A stretch of DNA of 64,000 bases. It comes from Streptomyces sp. TLI_171 (GTDB lineage Bacteria > Actinomycetota > Actinomycetes > Streptomycetales > Streptomycetaceae). The notes beneath the pieces are model-generated. The model worked only from the letters and a program-made list of their open reading frames with translations, did not search any database and had not been told where the DNA came from. The stretch spans positions 5,545,001 to 5,609,000 of the forward strand of contig NZ_RAPS01000001.1 in the NCBI RefSeq assembly GCF_003610255.1, read 5' to 3'. The position numbers were made by a program, and so were the translations under genes. Positions 7,418 to 19,309 of this stretch are shown piece by piece; the stretch's first letter is position 1; each line of letters begins with the position of its first letter.

Positions 7418-7546
7418 CGGAGAACCCCCTTCGCTGGGAGCGACCCTAGAGGGACTGCGGGGTGGTGTCGGTAGTGCGGGGTCTACCTTCCGTGGTGGGG
7501 CTCGCGTCAGTGTGCGGGGGGCTCGGCGGGGGTTGGGTTGTCGCTC

Positions 7547-9424
7547 ATGACGACCGCACTGACCAGGATCGCCGTCCGCTCGCTGTACGCCGGGAAGACC
7601 GCGCTGCTCGGGGCGTTCACCGCGCTCGCCCTCGGGGTCGCGCTGATGGCGGTGACGCTGCTCGGCCTCGCCGCGAGCGCCGCGCTGCCGCCCGGCGAGG
7701 ACCGGGTGTCGCTGATCGCCCAACTCGGCACCGCGGGAGGGGTCGGCGTCTTCACCGCCGGCTTCGTGGTGGCGTCCACCTTCTCCTACGCGGTGGCCCG
7801 GCGGCGGCGCGAGTTCGGGCTGCTCCGCCTCGCCGGGGCGACCCGCGGACAGCTGAGGCGCACCGTCCTGCTGGAGGCCGCGCTGTTCGGGCTGCTGGCC
7901 ACCGCGACGGGCGGTGCGCTGGGCCGGGCGGGGGCGCCGCTGCTCGCCCGCTGGCTGGTGGCCGCCGAGCTGGCGCCCGCGGGCTTCCGGATCGGCACGC
8001 CCGCCTGGCCGTTGGTCACCGCGTGCGCCACCGGCCCGCTGATCGCGCTCGCGGGAGTCGCCGTCGCCGCCCGGCGGGCCGGCCGGGTCCGCCCGCTGGA
8101 GGCGCTCCGGGAGGCGGACGTCGACCTGCGGGTGATGACGGCGGGCCGCTGGCTGGGCGCTCTGGCACTGCTCGGCGGGTCCGCGGCGCTCACCGCCGCC
8201 GCTCTGCTCCAGGACCCGGCGGACCTGCTGCACCGCAAGACCTACACGCTGCAGCCGATGGTGCTGGTCTCGGCCGCCGCGCTGCTCGCCCCGGTCCTGG
8301 CCCGCCCGCTGCTGCGGCTGCTGACCCTCCCGTTCACCCGCCGGCCCCGGCTGGTCCGGGCCGCCGCGCTCGGCGGTCTGCGCCGCACGGGCGCGCTCGC
8401 CGCGCCGGTGCTGCTGGCGGTCGCCCTCGCGGGCACCCTGGTGGGCGCCCCGGGCACGGTGGCCGCCGCGCGGTCCGCCGAGGCGCGGTCGCAGGTGCGG
8501 GCCGACCGGATCGTCGAACCCGGCGGCCGGGCGGACGCCTTGGCGGCCGCGCTGCGGTCGGCGCCGGGAACCGTGGTCTCGGCGACGGGCGGCGTGGCCC
8601 TGTCCGTGCTGGAATCCGACGGCACGTCAGTGCGGGCCGAGGGACGCATGGTTGACGATCCGTCGGCGCTGGCCGCGGTGCGGCGGCTGCCGGTGGTCGC
8701 GGGCGACCCGGCGGCGCTCGACGACGACAGCGTGGTGCTGTCCCGGGAGTGGGGGCACCGCACGGTGGGGGAGCCGGTGCCGGTGGTGCTCGCCGACGGC
8801 ACCCGGCGCACCCTGCGGGTGGCCGCCGTGCTGCGCGACGGGACGGGCGACCAGCCGGTGTACGTCACCGCGCGCAACGCGCCCGGCGCGCGGACCGACC
8901 GGATCGAGGTGAAGGCCGGCCCGGGCGCCGAACGGCAGGTGGACGAGGCCGCGCGGGCGTACGGGGCCGCCGTCGCGTCCCGCGCCGACTGGCTGGACGC
9001 GCACTACCCGGCGGACGACCCGCGCCGGGTGCGGCGGATCGCCGCCGTCCTCGGCCTGGCCCTGCTCTACACCGCCATCTCGCTGGCCCACACCGCCGTC
9101 ACCACCACCGCGGACCGGCGGCGCGAACTCGCCCAGCTCCGGCTGGCCGGCGCCACCAGGGGCCGGGTGCTGCGCCTGGTCGCCGCCGAGACCGCGCTGG
9201 TCGTCGCGGTCGGGGCGCTGCTCGGCGCCGCCGTCACGCTGGCCGCGCTCGGCGCGATGCAGGCGGCGCTGCGGCTGCTGGGCGCGCCCGCCGTGTTCGC
9301 GCTGCCGTGGGCGACGCCGGCCGCGACCGCCGCGCTCTGCGTCCTGATCGCCACCCCGTGCGCGACCCTCGCCGCGCTCCGGGCCACCGCGGACCGCCCG
9401 ATCACCGCGCTGCGTCGAGGCTGA
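7547..9424 (+). CDS. FtsX-like ABC transporter permease without adjacent ATPase
   Basis: Large MacB/FtsX-type permease, 625 aa, with two FtsX domains. The first has membrane segments at roughly 20-45, 65-90, 105-135 and 165-190. After a central pair (about 205-260) and another segment near 285-310, an extracellular domain (about 315-480) separates it from a second set at about 490-615. [20 protein letters not shown] and [20 protein letters not shown] are the paired cytoplasmic coupling motifs. ATG 7547 is chosen; an in-frame TTG at 7538 is possible. No ABC ATPase gene lies within several kb on either side, which is unusual because such permeases normally have one as direct neighbour. It is divergent from the kinase/regulator pair. 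Confidence 0.85.
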
Positions 9425-9470: not shown

Positions 9471-10493
9471 CTACTCGGTCTCGTCGGGGCTGTGCGCGGG
9501 CTGCGGCGGGACCGCCCAGCCCACCGGGCCCCGGTCGGGGCCGCTCGGGGCGGAGAACTGCTGCGGCTTGGGGCGGGCCCGCAGGTAGCGGCGCAGCAGC
9601 CAGCCGAGCGGGACCAGGATCAGCAGGAACGGCGCGAGCGCGGCCAGCACCATCAGCAGCACGCGCACCAGCCCGACCAGCGCCTCCCAGCCGCCGGACA
9701 GCGCGTCGCCGACCGAGTGCCAGAACCCGTCGTCGTGCCCGGCGGGGACGGGCGGGGCCGGCGTCGAGGCCGGCACCAGGTCCAGCGTCACGGTGGACAG
9801 CGAGGTGCGGGCGGTGAGCTCCTGCTGCTGGCGCTGCAGCGACTCCAGGTCGGACTCGCGGCGGGTCAGCTCGCTCTCCAGCGACACCACCTCGGCCAGC
9901 GACTTGGCGTCGGCCATCAGCGCCCGCACCCGGTCCACGCTGGCCTTCATCGACTTGACCCGGCTGTCCACGTCGGCGATCTGCTGGGTGAGGTCGTCGG
10001 CCTGGCTGGAGAGCGAGAGCCGGGTGCCGAGCCGGCCCAGCCCGTCGAGGGTCTGCTGGTACGCCGCGGACGGCACCTTGAGGACCAGGGTGGCCTGCAT
10101 GCTGTCGCCCGAACCGCCGCGCAGGTTCTCGCCGGACACGTACCCGTCGGCCGCGAGCACCAGGGCGACGGCCTTGCCGCGGGCCTGGTCGACGGCGTCG
10201 ACCCGTACGGTGAGCTTCGCCTGGTAGGCGATCTGACGGTTCGTCACCGCCGGGCTGCCCGCCCCGGCGGCGGTGTCCGTCCCGGCGCTCGCCGCGGCGC
10301 CCGCCCCGCTCCCGCCGGTGGCGGCCCCCTTGCCGGGGGTGGCCGCGCCGCCGGCCTGCGGGGCCACCGCGTCCTGGGCGACCCCGGCGCGCGAGGACGA
10401 CTGCTCTCCGCCGTCGTTCGCACTGCACCCCGCCAGCAGCAGGACCGCGGCCAGTGCCCCGGCCGCGCCGGCTCTGCGTACGCGCATCTCCAT
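9471..10493 (-). CDS. DUF4349 domain lipoprotein
   Basis: Membrane-anchored extracytoplasmic protein of unknown function, 340 aa. A type II signal peptide ends in LLLAGC (about residues 18-23), so it should be lipidated at that Cys. A low-complexity Ala/Gly/Ser stretch follows. The DUF4349 domain (about 90-300) includes a predicted coiled coil rich in Arg, Glu and Gln ([18 protein letters not shown]). One membrane helix lies near the C terminus (about 280-310: [26 protein letters not shown]) before a basic, Pro-rich tail. ATG 10493 has GGGGAGGG upstream. The frame extends further 5' but without a signal-peptide-like sequence. It is divergent from cgoX. Confidence 0.85.
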
Positions 10494-10674
10494 CCGTACC
10501 CTCCCCGTGTCCCGGGGCGGACCGTTCGCCGACCCCTTCGGAACTCTGACGCCGCGGCCGCGGATCCGGACCCGCACCGGCGGTACCGGATCGATCACGC
10601 TGCGGACTCACGGCGGTCTCAGGGCACCGGAGGCGGTTCCGGCATTTCGGATAAAGGCTGGAAGACTGATCGAC

Positions 10675-12078
10675 ATGGCGAAACCTCACGTCGTGGTGAT
10701 CGGTGGCGGAGTCGCGGGACTGGCCGCGGCCGCCTTCCTCAGTGCCGAACCGGTACGGGTGACCGTGCTGGAGGCGTCCGAACGCTTCGGCGGCAAGCTG
10801 CGCGGCGGCGAGGTCGGCGGCGTCCGGGTCGACCTCGGCGCGGAGTCGATGCTCGCCCGGCGGCCCGAGGCCGTCGAGCTGGCCCGCCTGGTCGGTCTCG
10901 GCGAGCAACTGGAACCGCCCACCACCGCCAAGGCCGCGATCTGGACCCGGGACGGGCTGCGCCCGCTGCCCGGCGGCCAACTCATGGGCGTACCGGGCGA
11001 CCTGGACGCCCTGAAGGCCTCCGGCGTGCTCACCCCCGAGGGTCTGCAGCGGGTCGTCGACGAGCAGCCCGCCGAGCTCGGCGAGGACGCCCCGATCGGG
11101 CAGTACATCGCCGCCCGGCTCGGCCGCGAGGTCGTCGACCGGCTGGTCGAACCGCTGCTCGGCGGCGTCTACGCCGGGCACGCCGACCGGATCTCGATCC
11201 GCGCCGCCGTCCCGCAACTGCTCCGACTCGCCGAGCAGCCCGGCTCGTTGACCGCCGCCGTCGCCGAACTCAGCCGCCGCGCCACCGCCACCGGACCGGT
11301 CTTCCAGGGTCTGCGCGGCGGACTCGGCACCCTCCCGGAGGCGATCGCCGCCCACGACCGCGCCCGCGGCGCCGACCTGCGCACCGGTCACCAGGTCGAG
11401 GCCCTGCGCCGCACCCCCGACGGCTGGCAGGTCACCACCGGTGGTCGCCGGATCGACGCCGACGCCGTCGTCCTGGCCGTCCCCGCGCCGCAGGCCGCCG
11501 CCCTGCTGGCCGCCGACGCCCCCGCCGCGGCGGCCGAACTGCGCCGGATCGAGTACGCGTCGATGGCCCTGGTCACCCTGGCGTTCCGGCGCGCCGACCT
11601 CGCCGACAGCCCGCTCACCGGCAGCGGCTTCCTCGTCCCGCCGGTCGACCGGCGCAGCATCAAGGCCTCCACCTTCTCCTCCAACAAGTGGGGCTGGCTG
11701 ACGCGCTCCGCCCCCGACGCCTTCCTGCTGCGCACCTCGCTCGGCCGCCACCAGGAGGACGCCGCACTGCAGTCGGACGACGCCGAACTCGTCGCCCGCT
11801 CGCTCGCCGACCTGCACGACGCCGTCGGCCTGCGCGCCACCCCGTACGACCACGCCGTCACCCGGTGGACCGACGGCCTCCCGCAGTACCCCGTCGGCCA
11901 CCTGGACCGGGTCGCCCGGATCCGCACGGAGCTCGACGCCCTCGGGGCGGTCGCGGTCTGCGGCGCCGCGTACGACGGCGTCGGCATCCCGGCCGTCGTC
12001 GCCGGCGCCCGGCGGGCCGCCGACCTCCTCACCCCCGGCACCGGCAGCAACCGTCCAGAAGGGACAATGGGCTCATGA
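10675..12078 (+). CDS. cgoX: coproporphyrinogen III oxidase (formerly HemY/HemG-type protoporphyrinogen oxidase)
   Basis: FAD enzyme of haem synthesis, 467 aa. In Actinobacteria it oxidises coproporphyrinogen III to coproporphyrin III. The N-terminal dinucleotide-binding fold [17 protein letters not shown] (about 5-21), [12 protein letters not shown], and the C-terminal FAD motif [21 protein letters not shown] are intact. Motif [10 protein letters not shown] is typical of bacterial family members. ATG 10675 is the first codon consistent with the FAD fold. The last codons overlap chdC by four bases (ATGA), so the pair is coupled, which supports the coproporphyrin-dependent rather than the protoporphyrin route. 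Confidence 0.95.
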
Positions 12079-12785
12079 CCGAAAGCACTGAGCAGCCCGT
12101 GAAGAAGAAGGCCCGCGACCTCAACCAGGTCATCCGCTACACCCTGTGGTCGGTGTTCAAGCTCAAGGACGGCCTCCCCGAGGACCGCACCGCACTCGTC
12201 GCCGAGGTCGACGCCCTCTTCGAGCAGCTCGACGCCAAGGACGTCACCGTCCGCGGCACCTACGACGTCTCCGGCCTGCGCGCCGACGCCGACCTGATGA
12301 TCTGGTGGCACGCCGAGTCCTCCGACGACCTGCAGGAGGCGTACAACCGCTTCCGCCGCACCGGTCTCGGCCGCCACCTGGAGCCGGTCTGGTCGAACAT
12401 GGCGCTGCACCGCCCCGCCGAGTTCAACAAGTCGCACATCCCGGCGTTCCTCGCCGACGAGCGGCCCCGCGAGTACGTCTGCGTCTACCCGTTCGTCCGC
12501 TCCTACGAGTGGTACCTGCTCCCCGACGAGGAGCGCCGCGCGATGCTGGCCGAGCACGGCAAGATGGCCCGCGGCTACCCCGACGTGCGCGCCAACACGG
12601 TCGCCTCCTTCGCGCTCGGCGACTACGAGTGGCTGCTCGCCTTCGAGGCCGACGAACTGCACCGCATCGTCGACCTGATGCGCGACCTGCGCCCCTCCCG
12701 CGCCCGGCTGCACGTCCGCGAAGAGGTCCCGTTCTTCACCGGCCGCCGCAAGCCGGTCGCCGAGCTGGTCGCCGGCCTGTACTAG
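12075..12785 (+). CDS. chdC: coproheme decarboxylase (HemQ, chlorite-dismutase family)
   Basis: Final step of the coproporphyrin-dependent pathway: oxidative decarboxylation of coproheme to haem b, 236 aa. Family features are [16 protein letters not shown] near the N terminus, WWHAES, the [13 protein letters not shown] strand with the reactive Tyr region, and [17 protein letters not shown], which contains the proximal haem-ligand His. It starts inside the cgoX stop codon (ATGA overlap). A strong bidirectional terminator follows. Ferrochelatase (CpfC) is not in the window. Confidence 0.96.
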
Positions 12786-12854: not shown

Positions 12855-13625
12855 CTAACGGTGGATCAGGGCGGCGCGCAGCCGCGGGTCCGCCACGGCG
12901 TCCGGGCCGCACATGGCGACGGCGGTGAGCAGGTCGTCCGGGGTCACGGTGTGGTGCGGGTGCGGCCAGCGCAGGGTGCGCAGCAGCGTCTGCCCGGCCG
13001 GGGCGGCCCAGGCGGTGTAGGCGTGGACGTCGACCCGGGCCATCAGCAGGGTGCCGCCGGTGAGCACCAGCGGGAGCGCGTACCAGGCGACGGCGGTCCG
13101 GGTGGCGGCGCTGTCCGGGGCGTTCAGCAGCACGGTCAGCACCAGCATCGCCGCCGCGCCGAGCAGCGCGTAGCGGACGTGCCGGATCGCCTGCAGCGCC
13201 CGGTCGCGGACCGCGGCAGGCGTGGCCAGCCCCGCCACGGCCAGCCGGTCGCCGATGTCGCGGACGGTCGGGTGGGCGGCCAGCGCCGCCTTCAACTGGG
13301 CGGTGCGGCACTGGCCTTCGGGACCGATGGCGCTGATCAGGGCCCGCTCCAGGCGGCTGCGCCCCTGCGGGTCGACCACGGTGGTCCAGCCGGTGTGGGC
13401 CAGGTGCAGCCGCCCGAGGCCGGCCATCCGGACCAGTGCGAGGTCCACCACCCGGCCCGGCCCGCCCGCCAGGTACGCGGTCTCGTACAGGCCGACCCCG
13501 GCGGGCCGCCCGGGCGGCGCCGGAAAGCGTCCGGTGAGGGTGTCCGCGACCGCCGCGACCCGTACCAGGCGGAGGCAGGAGAACACCGCGGCGGCACAGG
13601 ACGGGATCAGCAGCAGCACCCACAT
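12855..13625 (-). CDS. TIGR04222-like membrane protein without Cys tail
   Basis: Membrane protein of unknown function, 256 aa, paralogous to the next upstream gene. It has an N-terminal hydrophobic segment (about 1-20), a soluble region with the shared YLAGGPGRVVDLALVRM motif (about 50-70), and two more membrane segments at about 148-168 and 183-203. Unlike its paralogue it ends without a Cys-rich repeat (last residues RLRAALIHR). It is the last gene of the minus-strand cluster with the MNIO-type enzyme and ends at a bidirectional terminator. It could be a partner or scaffold of the tailed protein; function is unknown. Confidence 0.75.
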   Translation of the reverse strand: MWVLLLIPSCAAAVFSCLRLVRVAAVADTLTGRFPAPPGRPAGVGLYETAYLAGGPGRVVDLALVRMAGLGRLHLAHTGWTTVVDPQGRSRLERALISAIGPEGQCRTAQLKAALAAHPTVRDIGDRLAVAGLATPAAVRDRALQAIRHVRYALLGAAAMLVLTVLLNAPDSAATRTAVAWYALPLVLTGGTLLMARVDVHAYTAWAAPAGQTLLRTLRWPHPHHTVTPDDLLTAVAMCGPDAVADPRLRAALIHR

Positions 13626-13707
13626 GGTTTTTGTTCTAGTCCTGTGCCGGGCGGAAGCGGAACGCCTACCCCGGTCGCGATACCGAACTGTGACACTCGG
13701 CGGATGC

Positions 13708-14766
13708 TCAGGAACCGCAGCCGCCGCCCCCGCAGCTGGACCCGCAGGAGCTGGACGAACCGCACGAACTCGACGACCCGCAGGAGCTGGACGAGCCGCC
13801 GCACGAGTGCGAGGAGGAGTGCGAGGACGACCCGCAGGAGTGCCCGCCGTGCCCCGTGTGCCCGGTCGAGGAGCCGCAGGAGGCGGTGGTCGTCCCGCAC
13901 CACACCGCGCCCGCGGCGACCACCCCGCTGTCGCCGGAGGAGTCCGAACTCCGGGACCGCCCGGCCTTCTTGAGCGAGGTGGGCGCGCTCCGCCCGCCGC
14001 CCAGCGCGTCCCGCAGCGGCGACAGCTCGGCGGCGCTCAGCGCCGCCGTCCCGTCCAGCGCGAACGCGCCGACCAGCGCGGCGTGTTCGGCGCGGACCTC
14101 GCGCGGGCGCCACGGCGTGCTGCCGCGGACCAGCTGCAACTGGCGCACCCCGGCCGGCGTGATCCGGGACTTCGCGGGCCGGCCGACGACCAGGTGCACG
14201 CCGGCCAGCACGGCCAGCGCGCCGAACGCGAAGAACGGGGGAGCGGTGGAGTCCCGGTCGGGACCCGACAGCCACTGGGCGGTGGAGACCGCGCCGAGCA
14301 CCAGCGTGACCAGCAGCGCCAGCACCACCAGGCGGCGGGCCCGCCGGGCGGCCCGCAGCGCACCCGGGTGCCGCAGCAGCCCGCGGGCGGCCAGCGCCTC
14401 GCCGATCCGCTGCACCTCCGGGCTGCCCATCACGGAGGCGCGCAGCACCTCGGTGTCCCGCCCGGCCCGGCCGCCGACCGCGGTGATCAGCACCGCCTCG
14501 ACCGGCTCGCGCGGCGCGGCGTCCGTGACGGTGACCCGCCGGGCCCGGGAGATCACCACCCGACCCTCGCGCTCCATCCGGACCAGCACGGTGTCCACCA
14601 CCCGCCCCGGCCCGCCGGCCAGGAAAGCGGCGTGCAGCAGCGGAATGCCGCGCCCGGGCGGCCCCTGCGGGTCGGTGACGCGACGGCTGCGGCGGTCGAA
14701 GACGGTGGTGACGGTCATCGTCAGCACGACGAGCGCCAGTGCCACCACGAACTGGGTGTTCCACAT
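13708..14766 (-). CDS. TIGR04222-like membrane protein with Cys/Ser/Gly/His-rich tail, putative MNIO substrate
   Basis: Unusual 352-aa protein. It has a membrane segment at about 6-24, a soluble region with FLAGGPGRVVDTVLVRM (about 45-65), and further membrane segments at about 137-160 and 172-192. The last 64 residues form a tail with nine Cys (290, 297, 311, 322, 329, 335, 341, 345, 350) and five His. Its main unit is CGSSSS and it ends CGGGGCGS. Charge distribution suggests the tail is cytoplasmic. The DUF692-type gene is two genes upstream in the same operon; enzymes of that family modify Cys in ribosomal peptides, so the tail is a likely modification site (inference). ATG 14766 is used. 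Metal binding is possible but not shown. Confidence 0.78.
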   Translation of the reverse strand: MWNTQFVVALALVVLTMTVTTVFDRRSRRVTDPQGPPGRGIPLLHAAFLAGGPGRVVDTVLVRMEREGRVVISRARRVTVTDAAPREPVEAVLITAVGGRAGRDTEVLRASVMGSPEVQRIGEALAARGLLRHPGALRAARRARRLVVLALLVTLVLGAVSTAQWLSGPDRDSTAPPFFAFGALAVLAGVHLVVGRPAKSRITPAGVRQLQLVRGSTPWRPREVRAEHAALVGAFALDGTAALSAAELSPLRDALGGGRSAPTSLKKAGRSRSSDSSGDSGVVAAGAVWCGTTTASCGSSTGHTGHGGHSCGSSSHSSSHSCGGSSSSCGSSSSCGSSSSCGSSCGGGGCGS

Positions 14767-14808
14767 CCCCCGTGAGTCCTTTCGTGCGAAGCGTGCGGGT
14801 GCCGGGCG

Positions 14809-15246
14809 TTACGGGTGCGACTTGGCCGCGCGGCGCGGCAGCAGCCGGCTCCACCGACTCTCCGCGGGGTGCAGCAGCCGGTGCAGCGCGGCGTGCCAGG
14901 ACGCGCCCGGAGCGGCGTCCAGCGCCCAGTCGGCGAACGCCCGGGCGTCGGCCCGGTAGCCGCCGGTGAGCGGCCGACCGGCGGCGTACCGGGCGAACAG
15001 CGGGGCGAAGTCGGCGCCGAGCAGCTCCGGGAGTTCCGGCATCAGGTGGCCCACGGTCTCCCGGCGCTTGGCCAGCAGGCCCGCGGCCTGGGTGCGCAGC
15101 TGCGCCGGGTCGAAGCCCGCGGGCGCGGGCCCGCCCGCCACCAGGGCGGTCAACAACTGCTCCTGACGTTGCGCCAGGTTGCGCCGGGCGAGGGCGAGTT
15201 CGGCGTCCGCGCGGTCGCGGATCAGGTACTCGGTCTGTTCAGACAC
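14809..15246 (-). CDS. small partner-like protein of the DUF692 (MNIO) gene
   Basis: Hypothetical 145-aa soluble protein. Residues about 25-110 ([19 protein letters not shown], then [25 protein letters not shown] and FADWAL) resemble in pattern the N-terminal part of DUF2063-like proteins, which bind the precursor beside MNIO enzymes. The similarity is weak and judged by eye. GTG 15246 overlaps the stop of the DUF692 gene by eight bases, so the two are translationally coupled, and the Cys-tailed membrane protein follows 42 bases later. A substrate-recognition partner role is the simplest reading. Confidence 0.72.
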
Positions 15247-16087
15247 GGACGGGTTCCCCCTGGTGGTCGCGGGCCGCGCGGTGGACCCGACGGATGGCGT
15301 CGAGCTCGGCGGACAGTTCGGCGGGCGGCGGGTACGCGCCGTCCCGCTCCAGCAGCACCCCGGGTGGGTCGGTGCGCCCGCAGAGCGCGGCGAGCACCTC
15401 CAGCACGGGCGCGGTGACGGGATGGGTGTGGGTGTCGTGCCAGACGCCGTCGCGCTCGACCCCGCCGGCCACGTGCACGTAGGCGATCGCCTCCAGCGGC
15501 AGCCGGTCCAGTTCGGCGGCCGGGTCGACGCCCAGGTTGACCCGGTTGGTGTGCAGGTTGGCGACGTCCACCAGCAGGTGCACGCCGGTGCGCTCGACCA
15601 GCTCGGCGAGGAACTGGGCCTCCGTCAGCTCGTCGCCCGGCCAGGCCAGGTGCGCCGCGATGTTCTCCAGCGCCAGCGGGACCGGCAGTTCGGCCTGCGC
15701 GATCCGCACGTTCGCCGCCACCACCCGCAGCGCCTCCCGGGTCCGCGGCACCGGCAGCAGGTGCCCGGCCTCCAGGCCGCCCGCCCGGACGAACGCCAGG
15801 TGCTCGCTGACCAGCGGCGACCCGAGCGCCCCCGCCAGCTCCGCGAGCCGCGCCAGCCGGCCCCGGTCGGGCTCGGCGGCGTCGCCCAGGCCGAGCGACA
15901 CCCCGTGCGGGACGACCGTGACGCCGCGCGCCAGCAACGCCTCCAGCGACGGCGGCAGATGGCCGGCGCAGACGTTCTCGGCCACCACCTCGACCCAGTC
16001 CAGCCCGGTCAGCCGTTCCACCGCGGTGTCGATCTCGGGCCGCCAGCCCAGACCGGTGCCCAGCCGCGGAATACCGATCGGAGACAT
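15239..16087 (-). CDS. DUF692 family protein, multinuclear non-haem iron oxidative (MNIO) type
   Basis: TIM-barrel metalloenzyme, 282 aa, of the family that includes MbnB, TglH and bufferin-modifying enzymes, which act on Cys of ribosomal peptides. Candidate metal ligands are all present in order: [48 protein letters not shown] and LLERDGAYP. The N terminus has the family's [12 protein letters not shown] chose ATG 16087, which has AAGGGG six bases upstream; the frame extends to a GTG at 16156 without a good ribosome binding site. First gene of a four-gene minus-strand operon that includes a Cys-rich-tailed membrane protein, its likely substrate. Confidence 0.88.
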
Positions 16088-16288
16088 ATTCCACCCCTTT
16101 TCGACGGGCCATTGGAACGGCGCCGACTCCCCCGTTGCCGAGGGTGTATCCGCCACGGCCCGATGCCAAGCGGCACAACGGAAACTCAGAGCTGAACTTG
16201 AGGTTTCGGTTCCACTGAACGGCCGCCCGCGCGGGTGGGGGGAAATTCAGCGGCGCCCGGGAGAACGAATGGCTAACGTGACATGCCT

Positions 16289-17212: not shown

Positions 17213-19309
17213 TCAGGCCACGTCCACTCCGTGGTCGCGGGCCAGCCCGGCCAGGCCGTCGGACCAGCCCTGGCCGACGGCGCGGAGCTTCCAACCGTCG
17301 GCGGGGTGGCGGTAGAGCTCGGCGACCAGCATGGCGGAGACCGCCGGGTCGGTGGGCGGCCGGAAGACCCAGCGGCCGGTGCCCGAGGCGAGTTCGACGG
17401 CGGGGTCGACCAGGTCGGCGCAGGTCGCGTCGCCGTCCGTGTCGAGGTTGACGGAGACCGCCACCCGCGTGACGGCCGCCGGCAGCCGGCCGGTGAGCAC
17501 GGTCGCGCTGCGGTCCGCCGGCTGCAGCACCACCGCGCCGCCCTCCGCGCCGGGCTGGTGGTAGAAGACGAAGTCCTCGTCGCGGCGGACCTTGCCGTCC
17601 GGGCCGAGCAGCAGCAGCGTCAGGTCGGCGTCCGCGCCGCCGGCCCGGAACCGGACCCGGACCTCCCCGTCCGGCAGCACGGTGTTCTGACCCGGGCTCA
17701 GTTCGACGGCGGAAGGCCCCCGCTGGGCCGGGACCGCGGGCCCGAGCCGCCCGGGGAGGCCGTGTTCGCGCAGCAGGGCGAGCAGCATCGGCCCGTCGAC
17801 CAGGGTGAGCGGCTTGTCCTTGACGTGCCGGTGCGAGCCCGGCCCGAAGCCCGACGTGGTCACCAGGATGCCGCGGTTGGCGCCCTGGTGGCGCATGGTG
17901 GATTCGAGGTCGCGGACGGCGCTGGGGGAGACGGTGTGCCGGTAGCGCTTGGCCTGGATGACGATCTTGCCGCCGGTGATCGGGTCGGGGTCCTCGGCGA
18001 GCACGTCGACGCCCTCGTCGCCGCTGCGGTCGGTGGTGCTGGTGCGGAAGCCGCGCCGGCGGAACAGCTCGGCGATCAGCTTCTCGAATTCGAGCGGGTC
18101 CATGGCGAACAGGTCGGGCTCGTCCTCGTCGGCGGCGAAGGTCGCGGCGGCGGGCACGGCGGTGACGGTGTCGGCCTTCTCGGGGCGGGCGGAGAGCCGT
18201 CCGCCGAGGGCGTCCACCAGACAGTCCAGCGGGGCGACCCGGTCCAGGGCGAGGCCGGCGAAGGTCTCCCGGTCGACCTCGACGGCCAGCAGGCAGCGGT
18301 CGCCGTGCTGTCCGGTGGCCGGGTCGGGGGCGACCACCACGCCGTTCAGGCCGACCGAGGCGATCAGCCCGCCGGTGTCGGCGCGGAACACCTCGGCCAG
18401 CACCCGCAGCGCGCACTGGGCGAGGACCTCGCGGTAGAGCTCCTTGCGCTGGGCGGCGGGCCGGGCGACCTCGTCCTCGCGGTCGTCGGAGCGGACGTAC
18501 CGGTACCGGCCGACGGCCGGCACCACCTCGTACGGGGGCAGCTCCCAGCGCACCACCAGCCGGCGGGTGTCGGCGTCCCAGGAGGTCTCGCCGTCGGCGG
18601 GGAAGCCGTCCGGCCAGTCCTCGCGCCAGTCGATGACGGCCTCGAAGTACTCGGCGACGGCCGCGGCCTCGCCCGCGCGGAGCCGTTCGGCGAGCCTCCC
18701 GGCCTGGTCGGCCTGTCCGGCCAGCAGCCGGCGCCGCTCGGCGGCCCAGGCGTCGTACTGGGCGCGGTAGTCGGCGAGTTGGCGCTGCCGCTGCTGTTCG
18801 GCGGCCCAGGCGGCCTGCCAGTCGTACTCGAACCTGGCGCGGGCGTGCGCGGACTGCTCGTCCCACTGGCGGCGCGCCGCGGGCTGGTACGCCTGCGGGC
18901 CGGTCAACGGCGGGACCAGGTACCAGTTCTGATCGGGCATCGGCACCGGGACGCCCAGCGGCCCGGGATCGAACGGCGGCAGCGCGTCCCCGGGCCGGTC
19001 CGTCAGCGCGAACCCGCGGCCGGCCAGGCCGGTGGCCAGCACGCCGCGCAACTCGGCGACCCGCTCGTCCAGTTCGGCGGTGCGGCGGGCCGCGTCCGAC
19101 TCCCGGCCCTGCTGGTACGCCTTGAGCGCCTCGCGCTCGCCCCGGGCAGCCGTCCGCTGCGCCTCCCGCTGGGCGCGCTCGTACTCGCGCTGCTGGGTGG
19201 CGGCGGCCTTGCGCTGGGCCTCCGCGCGACGGTGCTGCTCGCGCTGAGCCTCCGCCAGTACCGACCACACCCCGGAAGACCGCCGCCGCGCCACGCCCGC
19301 CCCACCCAC
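17213..19309 (-). CDS. Mrr-like restriction endonuclease fused to TerD domain
   Basis: Multidomain protein, 698 aa. The N-terminal third is charged and coiled-coil-like (about 15-60 and 165-230). Residues about 404-515 form a PD-(D/E)xK nuclease of the Mrr type (GFRTSTTDRSGDEGVDVLAE with Asp 435, and IVIQAKRY with Gln 452/Lys 454). Residues about 533-698 are a TerD domain (ELSPGQNTVL; FVFYHQP; VAELYRHPADGWKLRAVGQG). TerD domains bind Ca2+ and mark stress or phage-defence assemblies, so a nucleic-acid-cleaving stress-response role is plausible. GTG 19309 is used; GTG 19294, behind a GGGG run, is an alternative. Convergent with the GNAT gene at a 12-base gap. Confidence 0.85.
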   Translation of the reverse strand: MGGAGVARRRSSGVWSVLAEAQREQHRRAEAQRKAAATQQREYERAQREAQRTAARGEREALKAYQQGRESDAARRTAELDERVAELRGVLATGLAGRGFALTDRPGDALPPFDPGPLGVPVPMPDQNWYLVPPLTGPQAYQPAARRQWDEQSAHARARFEYDWQAAWAAEQQRQRQLADYRAQYDAWAAERRRLLAGQADQAGRLAERLRAGEAAAVAEYFEAVIDWREDWPDGFPADGETSWDADTRRLVVRWELPPYEVVPAVGRYRYVRSDDREDEVARPAAQRKELYREVLAQCALRVLAEVFRADTGGLIASVGLNGVVVAPDPATGQHGDRCLLAVEVDRETFAGLALDRVAPLDCLVDALGGRLSARPEKADTVTAVPAAATFAADEDEPDLFAMDPLEFEKLIAELFRRRGFRTSTTDRSGDEGVDVLAEDPDPITGGKIVIQAKRYRHTVSPSAVRDLESTMRHQGANRGILVTTSGFGPGSHRHVKDKPLTLVDGPMLLALLREHGLPGRLGPAVPAQRGPSAVELSPGQNTVLPDGEVRVRFRAGGADADLTLLLLGPDGKVRRDEDFVFYHQPGAEGGAVVLQPADRSATVLTGRLPAAVTRVAVSVNLDTDGDATCADLVDPAVELASGTGRWVFRPPTDPAVSAMLVAELYRHPADGWKLRAVGQGWSDGLAGLARDHGVDVA

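What the first reader, a model, noticed from the sequence alone, without database searches (positions are those of the whole stretch)
12855..16087. MNIO (DUF692) operon with a membrane-anchored Cys/Ser/His-tailed protein: candidate RiPP-like system
Four minus-strand genes in tight order encode a DUF692 enzyme with all candidate metal ligands, a small partner-like protein with an 8-base overlap, a TIGR04222-like membrane protein whose last 64 residues hold nine Cys and five His in CGSSSS-type repeats, and a paralogue without tail. Characterised MNIO enzymes (MbnB, TglH, bufferin enzymes) modify Cys of small, usually released, peptides. Here the likely substrate is the tail of a three-helix membrane protein, predicted cytoplasmic. 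This suggests a surface-anchored modified metal-binding or redox array rather than a secreted natural product.
Basis: partly seen in the sequence, partly recalled or inferred. Interest (0 to 1): 0.92.

Follow-up and report, generated by a model that had tools for sequence, protein, structure and literature searches.

The report
Iron-enzyme operon with membrane-anchored cysteine tails
A soil bacterium carries an iron-dependent protein-modifying enzyme next to a membrane protein whose cysteine-rich tail probably hangs into the cell, and related bacteria carry the same kind of tail on a separate small membrane protein, which suggests an untested way of building metal-binding arrays on the inner face of the membrane.

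Summary
The operon is real: an MNIO (DUF692) enzyme, a DUF2063-like partner, a TIGR04222 membrane protein with a 64-residue tail (9 Cys, 5 His) and a tail-less paralogue. MNIO-TIGR04222 pairing is already in print (Antoine 2025; function unknown, tail called periplasmic). What the tools add: (1) the positive-inside rule puts the tail in the cytoplasm in 50 of 50 tailed and 47 of 47 tail-less orthologues tested and 21 of 21 from other families; (2) outside Streptomycetaceae, Cys-Gly tails occur in 15 of 15 MNIO-adjacent loci but in 1 of 10 genomes with TIGR04222 and no MNIO; (3) enzyme and partner are one ORF in 51 of 79 loci; (4) many Streptomyces lack the cis tail but carry an unlinked, ~100-residue single-pass protein with the same tail ("SWWAG family"; 92 of 197 genomes of the order, each with an MNIO). 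Best reading: the MNIO oxidises Cys-Gly sites on membrane-tethered, cytoplasm-facing tails, giving a resident metal-binding array, not a secreted product. The modification itself is untested, and 15 of 108 classified MNIO genomes show neither carrier.

The parts
15239..16156 (-). MNIO (DUF692, PF05114) enzyme; start either GTG 16156 or ATG 16087
   Evidence: PF05114 E 6.2e-81; NCBIfam BufB 193 bits, below its cut-off of 310; PDB relatives TglH, 3BWW, MbnB; 34 polar positions over 93% conserved in 81 orthologues, 8 of 9 such His positions in all 81
14809..15246 (-). 145-aa partner protein, DUF2063-like (PME-type), 8-base overlap with the MNIO
   Evidence: one ORF with the MNIO in 51 of 79 loci where both were found; PF09836 DUF2063 matched at E<=1 by 9 of 35 homologues, best 1.6e-4, not by the window protein itself; AF2 pLDDT 91.8; top VIA-align rows MbnC Z 6.1, TglI Z 6.0 and 5.5, next row 4.2
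13708..14766 (-). TIGR04222 membrane protein with C-terminal Cys/Gly/Ser/His tail (352 aa)
   Evidence: TIGR04222 E 1.4e-30; AF2 model: helix 2-28, mixed domain 43-127 (winged-helix-like by my reading), helices 134-167 and 178-194, residues 258-352 mostly under pLDDT 50
13708..13902 (-). the 64-residue tail, 9 Cys (each followed by Gly) and 5 His, from Trp-Cys to the stop
   Evidence: codon listing; orthologous tails; next residue after Cys in 52 tails: Gly 366, Ser 60, Ala 14
14683..14763 (-). transmembrane helix 1 (residues 2-28)
   Evidence: hydropathy, AF2
14266..14340 (-). transmembrane helix 2 (about residues 143-167)
   Evidence: hydropathy, AF2
14185..14235 (-). transmembrane helix 3 (residues 178-194); the basic stretch after it marks the cytoplasmic side
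12855..13625 (-). tail-less TIGR04222 paralogue (256 aa)
   Evidence: TIGR04222 E 4.2e-34; same orientation by positive-inside in 47 of 47 tail-less orthologues tested
12072..12785 (+). context, not part of the system: HemQ (chlorite-dismutase family), convergent with the operon
   Evidence: PF06778 E 3.3e-80
10273..12078 (+). context, not part of the system: protoporphyrinogen/coproporphyrinogen oxidase (HemY type)
   Evidence: PF01593 E 1.5e-47; NF008841 356.9 bits, below its cut-off of 517, TIGR00562 209 bits, above its cut-off

Best explanation
The MNIO and its DUF2063-like partner form a cytoplasmic enzyme complex that oxidatively modifies the cysteines of Cys-Gly dyads in a disordered tail held at the inner face of the membrane. 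In this window the tail is carried in cis by a three-helix TIGR04222 protein; in many Streptomyces it is carried in trans by a single-pass protein (SWWAG family). By analogy with the 5-thiooxazole-forming MNIOs (bufferins, captophorins), the product is most likely a row of thiooxazole or similar ligands. These, with the His clusters, would hold soft metal (Cu(I) as first guess) at the membrane as a resident buffer or sensor, not a released natural product. Shown by computation: gene order, families, conserved residues, tail side by charge, association of Cys tails with MNIO. Inferred: that the tail is modified, the chemistry, and the metal role.
For: Conserved His/Asp/Glu residues are kept alike in loci with Cys tail, with only the tail-less paralogue, and without TIGR04222 (that they are the iron ligands is recalled). 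Partner and MNIO are one ORF in 51 of 79 loci; partner resembles MbnC/TglI. Cys-Gly tails: 15 of 15 MNIO-adjacent loci, 3 of 5 loci in genomes with the MNIO elsewhere, 1 of 10 genomes with TIGR04222 and no MNIO (first against last: Fisher 4.9e-6, not corrected for kinship); five MNIO-less genomes of one family have Asp-rich ends without Cys; G167, the one genome of the order read that has TIGR04222 and no MNIO, has no Cys tail (a second such genome, G042, was not read). Cytoplasmic side: mean K+R 3.2, 3.6 and 4.2 in the three inner flanks against 0.5 in the outer loop; 50/50 tailed, 47/47 tail-less, 21/21 from other families agree, single-pass family 30/30. Single-pass tail family in 92 of 197 genomes, each with an MNIO, in 0 of 20 MNIO-less genomes. 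FonB, a thiooxazole-forming MNIO, favours Cys-Gly (PMC12668002).
Against: No modification has been measured. 15 of 108 classified MNIO genomes have neither a Cys-tailed TIGR04222 at the MNIO locus nor a recognised single-pass tail. The one MNIO-less genome with a Cys-Gly tail (G464) has its tail gene at a contig end, but no MNIO was found on its other contigs either, so it may be a true exception. 7 of 23 genomes behind tail-less loci keep MNIO and partner with no TIGR04222 above the cut-off. The counter-distribution of the two carriers cannot be separated from shared ancestry (4 independent pairs). Six of the ten MNIO-less genomes are one family. Antoine et al. place the tail outside. No copper gene was recognised beside the operon.
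Confidence: 0.6

Rival explanations
1. The tail is modified by the MNIO but lies outside the membrane, like bufferins: modified in the cytoplasm, then moved across as the C-terminus of the membrane protein, acting as an extracytoplasmic metal trap.
For: Antoine et al. [quoted passage not shown] Bufferins carry Sec signals.
Against: Charge distribution is opposite in all 118 TIGR04222 proteins tested (50+47+21); the single-pass carriers show the same orientation (30 of 30, mean net charge +6.4 after the helix, about 0 before). MNIO and partner show no export signal by eye; no predictor was run.
Confidence: 0.12
2. The tail is an unmodified low-complexity metal-binding or scaffold segment; the MNIO acts on another, unlinked substrate and the gene neighbourhood is inherited.
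For: MNIO and partner persist without TIGR04222 (7 of 23 genomes with tail-less loci); ends without Cys exist on related proteins.
Against: Cys-Gly tails appear almost only where an MNIO is present; an unlinked second carrier with the same Cys-Gly tail was also seen only in MNIO genomes.
Confidence: 0.17
3. Classical RiPP: the tail is a core peptide cut off after modification and released as a metallophore or antibiotic; the neighbouring TAP-like hydrolase of Streptomyces makes the cut.
For: A TAP-like alpha/beta hydrolase gene lies downstream in 38 of 80 named loci.
Against: That hydrolase gene is absent at the window; no protease gene in the operon; the nearest exporter-like gene (an FtsX-type permease by eye, 7538-9424) is on the other strand beyond hemY. 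Two unrelated anchors carry the tail, which suggests that anchoring matters.
Confidence: 0.08

Closest known systems
MNIO-TIGR04222 gene clusters, mostly Actinomycetota (Antoine et al. 2025, PMC12452194)
   Same: Same enzyme family, same membrane protein family with C-terminal Cys/Ser/Gly segment, PME-type 2 partners in part of them, function unknown; they too find TIGR04222 without Cys or without MNIO
   Different: They place the tail in the periplasm; here the charge rule puts it in the cytoplasm. Their precursor search used genes beside MNIOs, which would not show an unlinked single-pass tail family. MNIO-partner fusions and Asp-for-Cys ends did not appear in the passages I read
Bufferins / captophorins (5-thiooxazole peptides; PMC12668002, and bufferin work described in PMC12452194)
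   Same: Related MNIO, DUF2063-type partner, Cys-Gly sites in repeats, likely soft-metal ligand
   Different: Those precursors are small peptides, mostly with a Sec signal, with a partner of DUF2063 plus RRE; here the putative substrate is an integral membrane protein, the partner has one DUF2063-like domain only, and the enzyme scores below the BufB cut-off
TglHI and MbnBC enzyme-partner pairs
   Same: MNIO plus partner; the partner model aligns best to MbnC and TglI
   Different: Substrates there are small peptides (recalled, and abstracts listed)
DUF2617 and spermidine synthase operons (PSP survey, PMC11237479)
   Same: The single-pass tail gene lies upstream of a DUF2617 gene and a membrane spermidine synthase gene
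   Different: The passage I read names DUF4247, DUF350 and others there, no Cys-tail protein

Membership tests
MNIO (MbnB_TglH_ChrH, PF05114) | sequence match above the curated cut-off | tested here: met
   272 bits against cut-off 25
MNIO (MbnB_TglH_ChrH, PF05114) | conserved His/Asp/Glu/Asn iron ligands | tested here: met
   conserved in 81 orthologues and aligned to TglH, 3BWW and MbnB; which of them bind iron is recalled, not shown by a call
MNIO (MbnB_TglH_ChrH, PF05114) | multi-iron cofactor and oxidative activity | not testable with these tools
   needs purified protein
Bufferin/captophorin maturase (BufB, NF050167) | equivalog cut-off | tested here: not met
   193.1 bits against 310
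Bufferin/captophorin precursor | small peptide with Sec signal and DUF2282 or EGKCG-type core | tested here: not met
   352-aa protein with three membrane helices; no such Pfam or NCBIfam hit; no signal-peptide predictor was run
Bufferin/captophorin precursor | 5-thiooxazole on Cys | not testable with these tools
   needs mass spectrometry or NMR
TIGR04222 domain membrane proteins | match above the family cut-off of 43 bits | tested here: met
   106.7 and 118.2 bits
PME-type partner (DUF2063-like) | DUF2063-like domain encoded with the MNIO | tested here: met
   found beside or fused to the MNIO in 79 of 81 loci (the 2 misses are cut by contig ends); PF09836 matched by 9 of 35 homologues at E<=1, best 1.6e-4
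PME-type partner (DUF2063-like) | fold of MbnC/TglI | tested here: inconclusive
   the three best of 124 chains are MbnC and TglI, Z 5.5-6.1, but Z of this size can be a common helical arrangement; plain Foldseek gave no match at E<=0.001
PME-type partner (DUF2063-like) | full RRE domain as in PME-type 1 | tested here: not met
   144 residues, all helical in the model, no strand
RiPP | cleaved leader and released core peptide | not testable with these tools
   no protease or exporter gene recognised in the operon

The most novel reading that the evidence does not exclude
MNIO enzymes of Actinomycetes are resident membrane-protein modification enzymes, not makers of released RiPPs: they decorate a portable Cys-Gly-Ser-His tail module that faces the cytoplasm and is carried either in cis by TIGR04222 proteins or in trans by an unlinked single-pass SWWAG protein beside a DUF2617-spermidine synthase pair, building a tethered metal or redox array on the inner membrane face.
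Probability: 0.42. Interest if true: 0.82.

Novelty: new variant of a known kind. Interest (0 to 1): 0.64.

Why it matters
If true, an enzyme family known for small peptide products also modifies integral membrane proteins in place, in most of the Streptomyces genomes classified here. It gives a defined, testable substrate (a tail of about 60 residues), natural enzyme-partner fusions that should ease in vitro work, and a second, unlinked substrate family that surveys of MNIO gene neighbourhoods cannot see. It also questions a topology claim in print, which decides whether to look for a secreted metallophore or a membrane-tethered metal buffer inside the cell.

Tried and rejected
Pattern scan for TGCGG repeats: about as many matches as the reversed control in most of the 8 genomes, and a capped list, so useless as a count; one listed hit, picked by eye, led to the single-pass family. 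Foldseek of the TIGR04222 model against PDB: no match at E<=0.001. Foldseek of the partner: none at E<=0.001. Profile searches of the PDB with A2 and A3: nothing meaningful (several A3 hits are linkers and antibody fragments matching the tail). Pairing of 'cis tail' and 'single-pass tail' with correction for kinship: too few independent pairs, so no significance is claimed. Heme link considered and put aside: hemQ/hemY converge on the operon and are not in it; the hemY-like neighbour is also found in loci without TIGR04222 (6 of 11, against 42 of 51 tailed and 14 of 18 tail-less). DUF4142, PTH2 and the TAP-like hydrolase as alternative partners or substrates are not excluded: all three are more frequent in tail-less loci (DUF4142 10 of 18 tail-less, 5 of 11 without TIGR04222, 9 of 51 tailed; PTH2 11, 9, 15; hydrolase 15, 5, 18), but 21 of the tailed rows are one Kitasatospora-rich clade, which may be the whole reason. 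Phylum-wide TIGR04222 scan: 37 of 197 genomes, only 8 above the cut-off; not used further.

Corrections of my own counts: labels 18 loci 'untailed' and 11 'noTIGR'. On reading, L083, L103, L114, L134 and L140 are cut by contig ends, L123 ends in adaptor-like sequence, and L099 has its tail in a shifted frame. Corrected: 52 tailed, 1 frame-shifted, 15 with the tail-less protein only, 7 without TIGR04222, 6 undetermined, of 81. In the order sample G067 is labelled noTIGR only because its TIGR04222 lies beyond the stretch fetched, and G030 'noMNIO' because the contig ends (one search lists an MNIO there). In some searches the seventh protein was given in a wrong frame (0 families); the right frame was scanned. 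Of 32 TIGR04222 proteins of the class sample, 21 were used for the charge test; those with a partial domain match, second paralogues or doubtful frame were left out.
Full report
OBSERVATION. The window lies in an 8.46 Mb genome (G000); the best named MNIO match is 90% to Kitasatospora sp. CB01950. MNIO and partner overlap by 8 bases, partner and tailed protein are 42 bases apart, the paralogue follows after 82. The MNIO matches PF05114 (E 6.2e-81); its closest NCBIfam models are BufB (193 bits, cut-off 310) and HvfB (153, cut-off 360), so it is an MNIO but not a curated bufferin maturase. Both membrane proteins pass the TIGR04222 cut-off. The genome search found one MNIO and two TIGR04222 proteins, all here. 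The tail has 9 Cys and 5 His in 64 residues; repeat units differ by synonymous codons.

WHAT IS IN PRINT. A full-text search for TIGR04222 found two papers. The one that joins it to MNIOs is Antoine et al. 2025, PMC12452194, of which I saw passages, the abstract with outline, and the partner section; the other (PMC5183585) I saw as a listing only. Antoine et al. report over 3,500 TIGR04222 proteins, MNIO neighbours for many, PME-type 2 partners in at least 10% of the clusters, C-terminal Cys/Ser/Gly regions, more than a quarter without C-proximal Cys, and they call the tail periplasmic and the role open. So the pairing is known. A search for the string SSCGGGSSCGGG found no paper; MNIO with transmembrane and Streptomyces found three, of which only Antoine is on the subject.

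PARTNER. The 145-aa protein has no Pfam hit itself, but 9 of 35 homologues match DUF2063 at E<=1, best 1.6e-4. In 81 MNIO loci (80 named plus the window) a partner was found in 79: in one ORF with the MNIO in 51, separate in 28; the two misses are cut by contig ends. The model (pLDDT 91.8) has MbnC and TglI as the three best of 124 re-aligned chains, Z 6.1, 6.0 and 5.5, the next row 4.2. Z of this size alone could be chance for a helical domain; with the fusions and the DUF2063 matches I take the assignment as firm.

ENZYME. Of 34 polar positions conserved in over 93% of the 81 orthologues, nine are His; eight of these are kept in all 81 and one in 80. They are kept alike in loci with a Cys tail, with only the tail-less paralogue, and with no TIGR04222. 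That they include the iron ligands is recalled; the alignments to TglH, 3BWW and MbnB are. FonB, a 5-thiooxazole-forming MNIO, has a proposed base Asp249 followed by Phe250, and Arg15-Arg16 near the substrate (PMC12668002, section 13). By my reading of the 3BWW alignment these are E-R-D-F and R-R; the window has the Asp and the first Arg, and Gly and Pro at the other two places. That mapping is inference.

TOPOLOGY. In 50 tailed orthologues that passed a coverage filter, K+R averages 3.2 after helix 1, 3.6 before helix 2 and 4.2 after helix 3, but 0.5 in the helix 2-3 loop, which is acidic; all 50 have more inside than outside, as do 47 of 47 tail-less ones and 21 of 21 from other families of the class (21 of the 32 proteins there). 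Helices 2 and 3 form a hairpin, so the domain after helix 1 and the tail lie on one side; the tail is disordered in the model. I conclude that the tail faces the cytoplasm, against Antoine et al. MNIO and partner can then meet the tail where it stands.

CYS TAILS TRACK THE ENZYME. In a sample of 148 genomes of the class, both families sought at E<=1e-10, 21 genomes outside Streptomycetaceae have an MNIO and 15 of them have TIGR04222 beside it. I read all 30 loci of the 28 genomes there with TIGR04222. At least two Cys-Gly dyads in the last 60 residues: 15 of 15 loci beside an MNIO, 3 of 5 loci in genomes with the MNIO elsewhere, 1 of 10 in genomes without MNIO (Fisher, first against last, 4.9e-6). 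The exception, G464, has its tail gene about 140 bases from a contig end, on the side where a relative (G474) has the MNIO; but no MNIO turned up on its other contigs, so it may be real. Five MNIO-less genomes of one family have ends without Cys, four of them Gly-Gly-Asp repeats. Six of the ten MNIO-less genomes share a family, so the p value overstates independence. In the order, G167 (TIGR04222, no MNIO) has no Cys tail; G042, the other such genome, was not read.

THE TAIL IS NOT ALWAYS IN CIS. Of the 81 loci, after correction for contig ends and a frame shift, 52 are tailed, 1 frame-shifted, 15 have only the tail-less paralogue, 7 have no TIGR04222, 6 cannot be told. Of the 23 genomes behind tail-less loci searched, 7 have no TIGR04222 above the cut-off anywhere; three others have an unlinked TIGR04222-like protein with a Cys-Gly tail (L160, L165, L166). 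On the MNIO tree the tail-less state is one large Streptomyces clade plus scattered cases. Among 39 loci taken from the upper part of the printed MNIO list of the order sample (tail state unknown to me, though the number of TIGR04222 hits per genome was visible), 22 are tailed, 10 tail-less, 7 without TIGR04222.

THE SECOND CARRIER. Following one hit of a pattern scan I found, in a genome without TIGR04222 hits, a 111-aa protein with one N-terminal helix, a basic stretch, S-W-W-A-G, Gly-His repeats and an S-C-G-G-G tail. A single-sequence search finds it in 52 of 197 genomes of the order, a profile of 15 members (A1) in 92 of 197, all in one genus code and not in the window genome. Thirty members were read: 92-122 residues by my choice of start, WW in 30 of 30, Cys followed by Gly in 155 of 159, mean net charge +6.4 after the helix and about 0 before it, in the same sense in all 30, so again a cytoplasmic tail. 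Among 49 named genomes (22 tail-less, 27 tailed; some are the same species as in the order sample) it is in 16 of 22 and 10 of 27; 25 of these 26 hits were read and have the same plan. In the genomes read it is unlinked to the MNIO. In 56 loci with 1.5 kb flanks (some genomes twice) the neighbours are an aminotransferase-like gene in 50, a DUF2617 gene in 52 and a spermidine synthase gene in 52 (names from Pfam on one locus, the aminotransferase by eye). A PSP-stress survey describes DUF2617 in polyamine and envelope operons (passage of PMC11237479).

Each of the 92 genomes has an MNIO; none of the 20 MNIO-less genomes has the protein (9 of these are Streptomycetaceae; Fisher within the family about 0.003, not corrected for kinship). 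In the 39 unselected loci it is in 2 of 22 tailed, 10 of 10 tail-less and 0 of 7 TIGR04222-free genomes. In all 108 MNIO genomes with known state, a set I had enriched for carriers, it is in 9 of 37 tailed, 49 of 53 tail-less and 7 of 18 TIGR04222-free. Counting on the tree leaves 4 independent pairs, too few for a test. The pattern fits a substrate that moved between cis and trans, but descent alone could give it. 15 of the 108 have neither carrier recognised; other tails, such as the unlinked TIGR04222-like ones, were not sought there.

MECHANISM. FonB favours Cys-Gly, though not absolutely (PMC12668002, section 12), and its family makes 5-thiooxazole copper ligands (abstract; section 6 also seen). 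The tails here are Cys-Gly in 366 of 440 Cys (TIGR04222) and 155 of 159 (single-pass). I therefore think that MNIO plus partner convert tail Cys, most likely to thiooxazole or a related ligand, on the membrane-tethered protein, and that the product stays as a metal-binding array with help from the His clusters. Probabilities, by judgement: tail modified by this MNIO 0.75; tail cytoplasmic 0.85; thiooxazole-type chemistry 0.5; copper buffering 0.35. A Streptomyces coelicolor gene, SCO6045, which I recall (unchecked) as the MNIO, is listed with values 1.59 and 3.01 in an RNA-seq table on the HbpS-SenS-SenR redox system (PMC4991794, one passage); a lead only.

VERDICT. A new variant of a known, uncharacterised kind.

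Noticed in passing
L334-L363, L424-L449: SWWAG family: unlinked single-pass proteins with the same Cys-Gly tail, with a DUF2617 gene and a membrane spermidine synthase gene beside them in 52 of 56 loci.
   Followed up: partly
L160, L162-L168: Further unlinked TIGR04222-like proteins in Streptomyces, several matching mainly the first half of the model, with ends from Cys-Gly-rich (L160, L165, L166) to His/Tyr/Gly-rich (L163, L168).
   Followed up: no
L283, L284, L285, L287: TIGR04222 proteins of MNIO-less genomes of one family end in Gly-Gly-Asp repeats, as if Asp stood in for Cys; a fifth (L282) is Asp/Ser-rich.
   Followed up: partly
window 17213-19309 (-): One 698-aa ORF joins an Mrr-type restriction endonuclease domain (PF04471, E 3e-31) with a TerD domain (PF02342, E 3e-19), a pairing I have not met before.
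   Followed up: no
L084 7659-9878: MNIO-partner fusion with a very long Ala/Thr/Gly-rich linker; linkers range from 23 to 203 residues among 51 fusions.
   Followed up: no
L123 4629-6503; L099 9510-10581; L141 8877-10426: Likely assembly faults or broken copies in public contigs: L123 ends in adaptor-like translated sequence; in L099 the Cys tail lies in a shifted frame; in L141 the tailed TIGR04222 is split over two frames.
   Followed up: partly
L124 6334-7101, L117 6925-7734, L117 12548-14254: Frequent neighbours of the MNIO in Streptomyces: PTH2-like protein, DUF4142 protein, TAP-like hydrolase; all more frequent in tail-less loci, perhaps by descent.
   Followed up: partly
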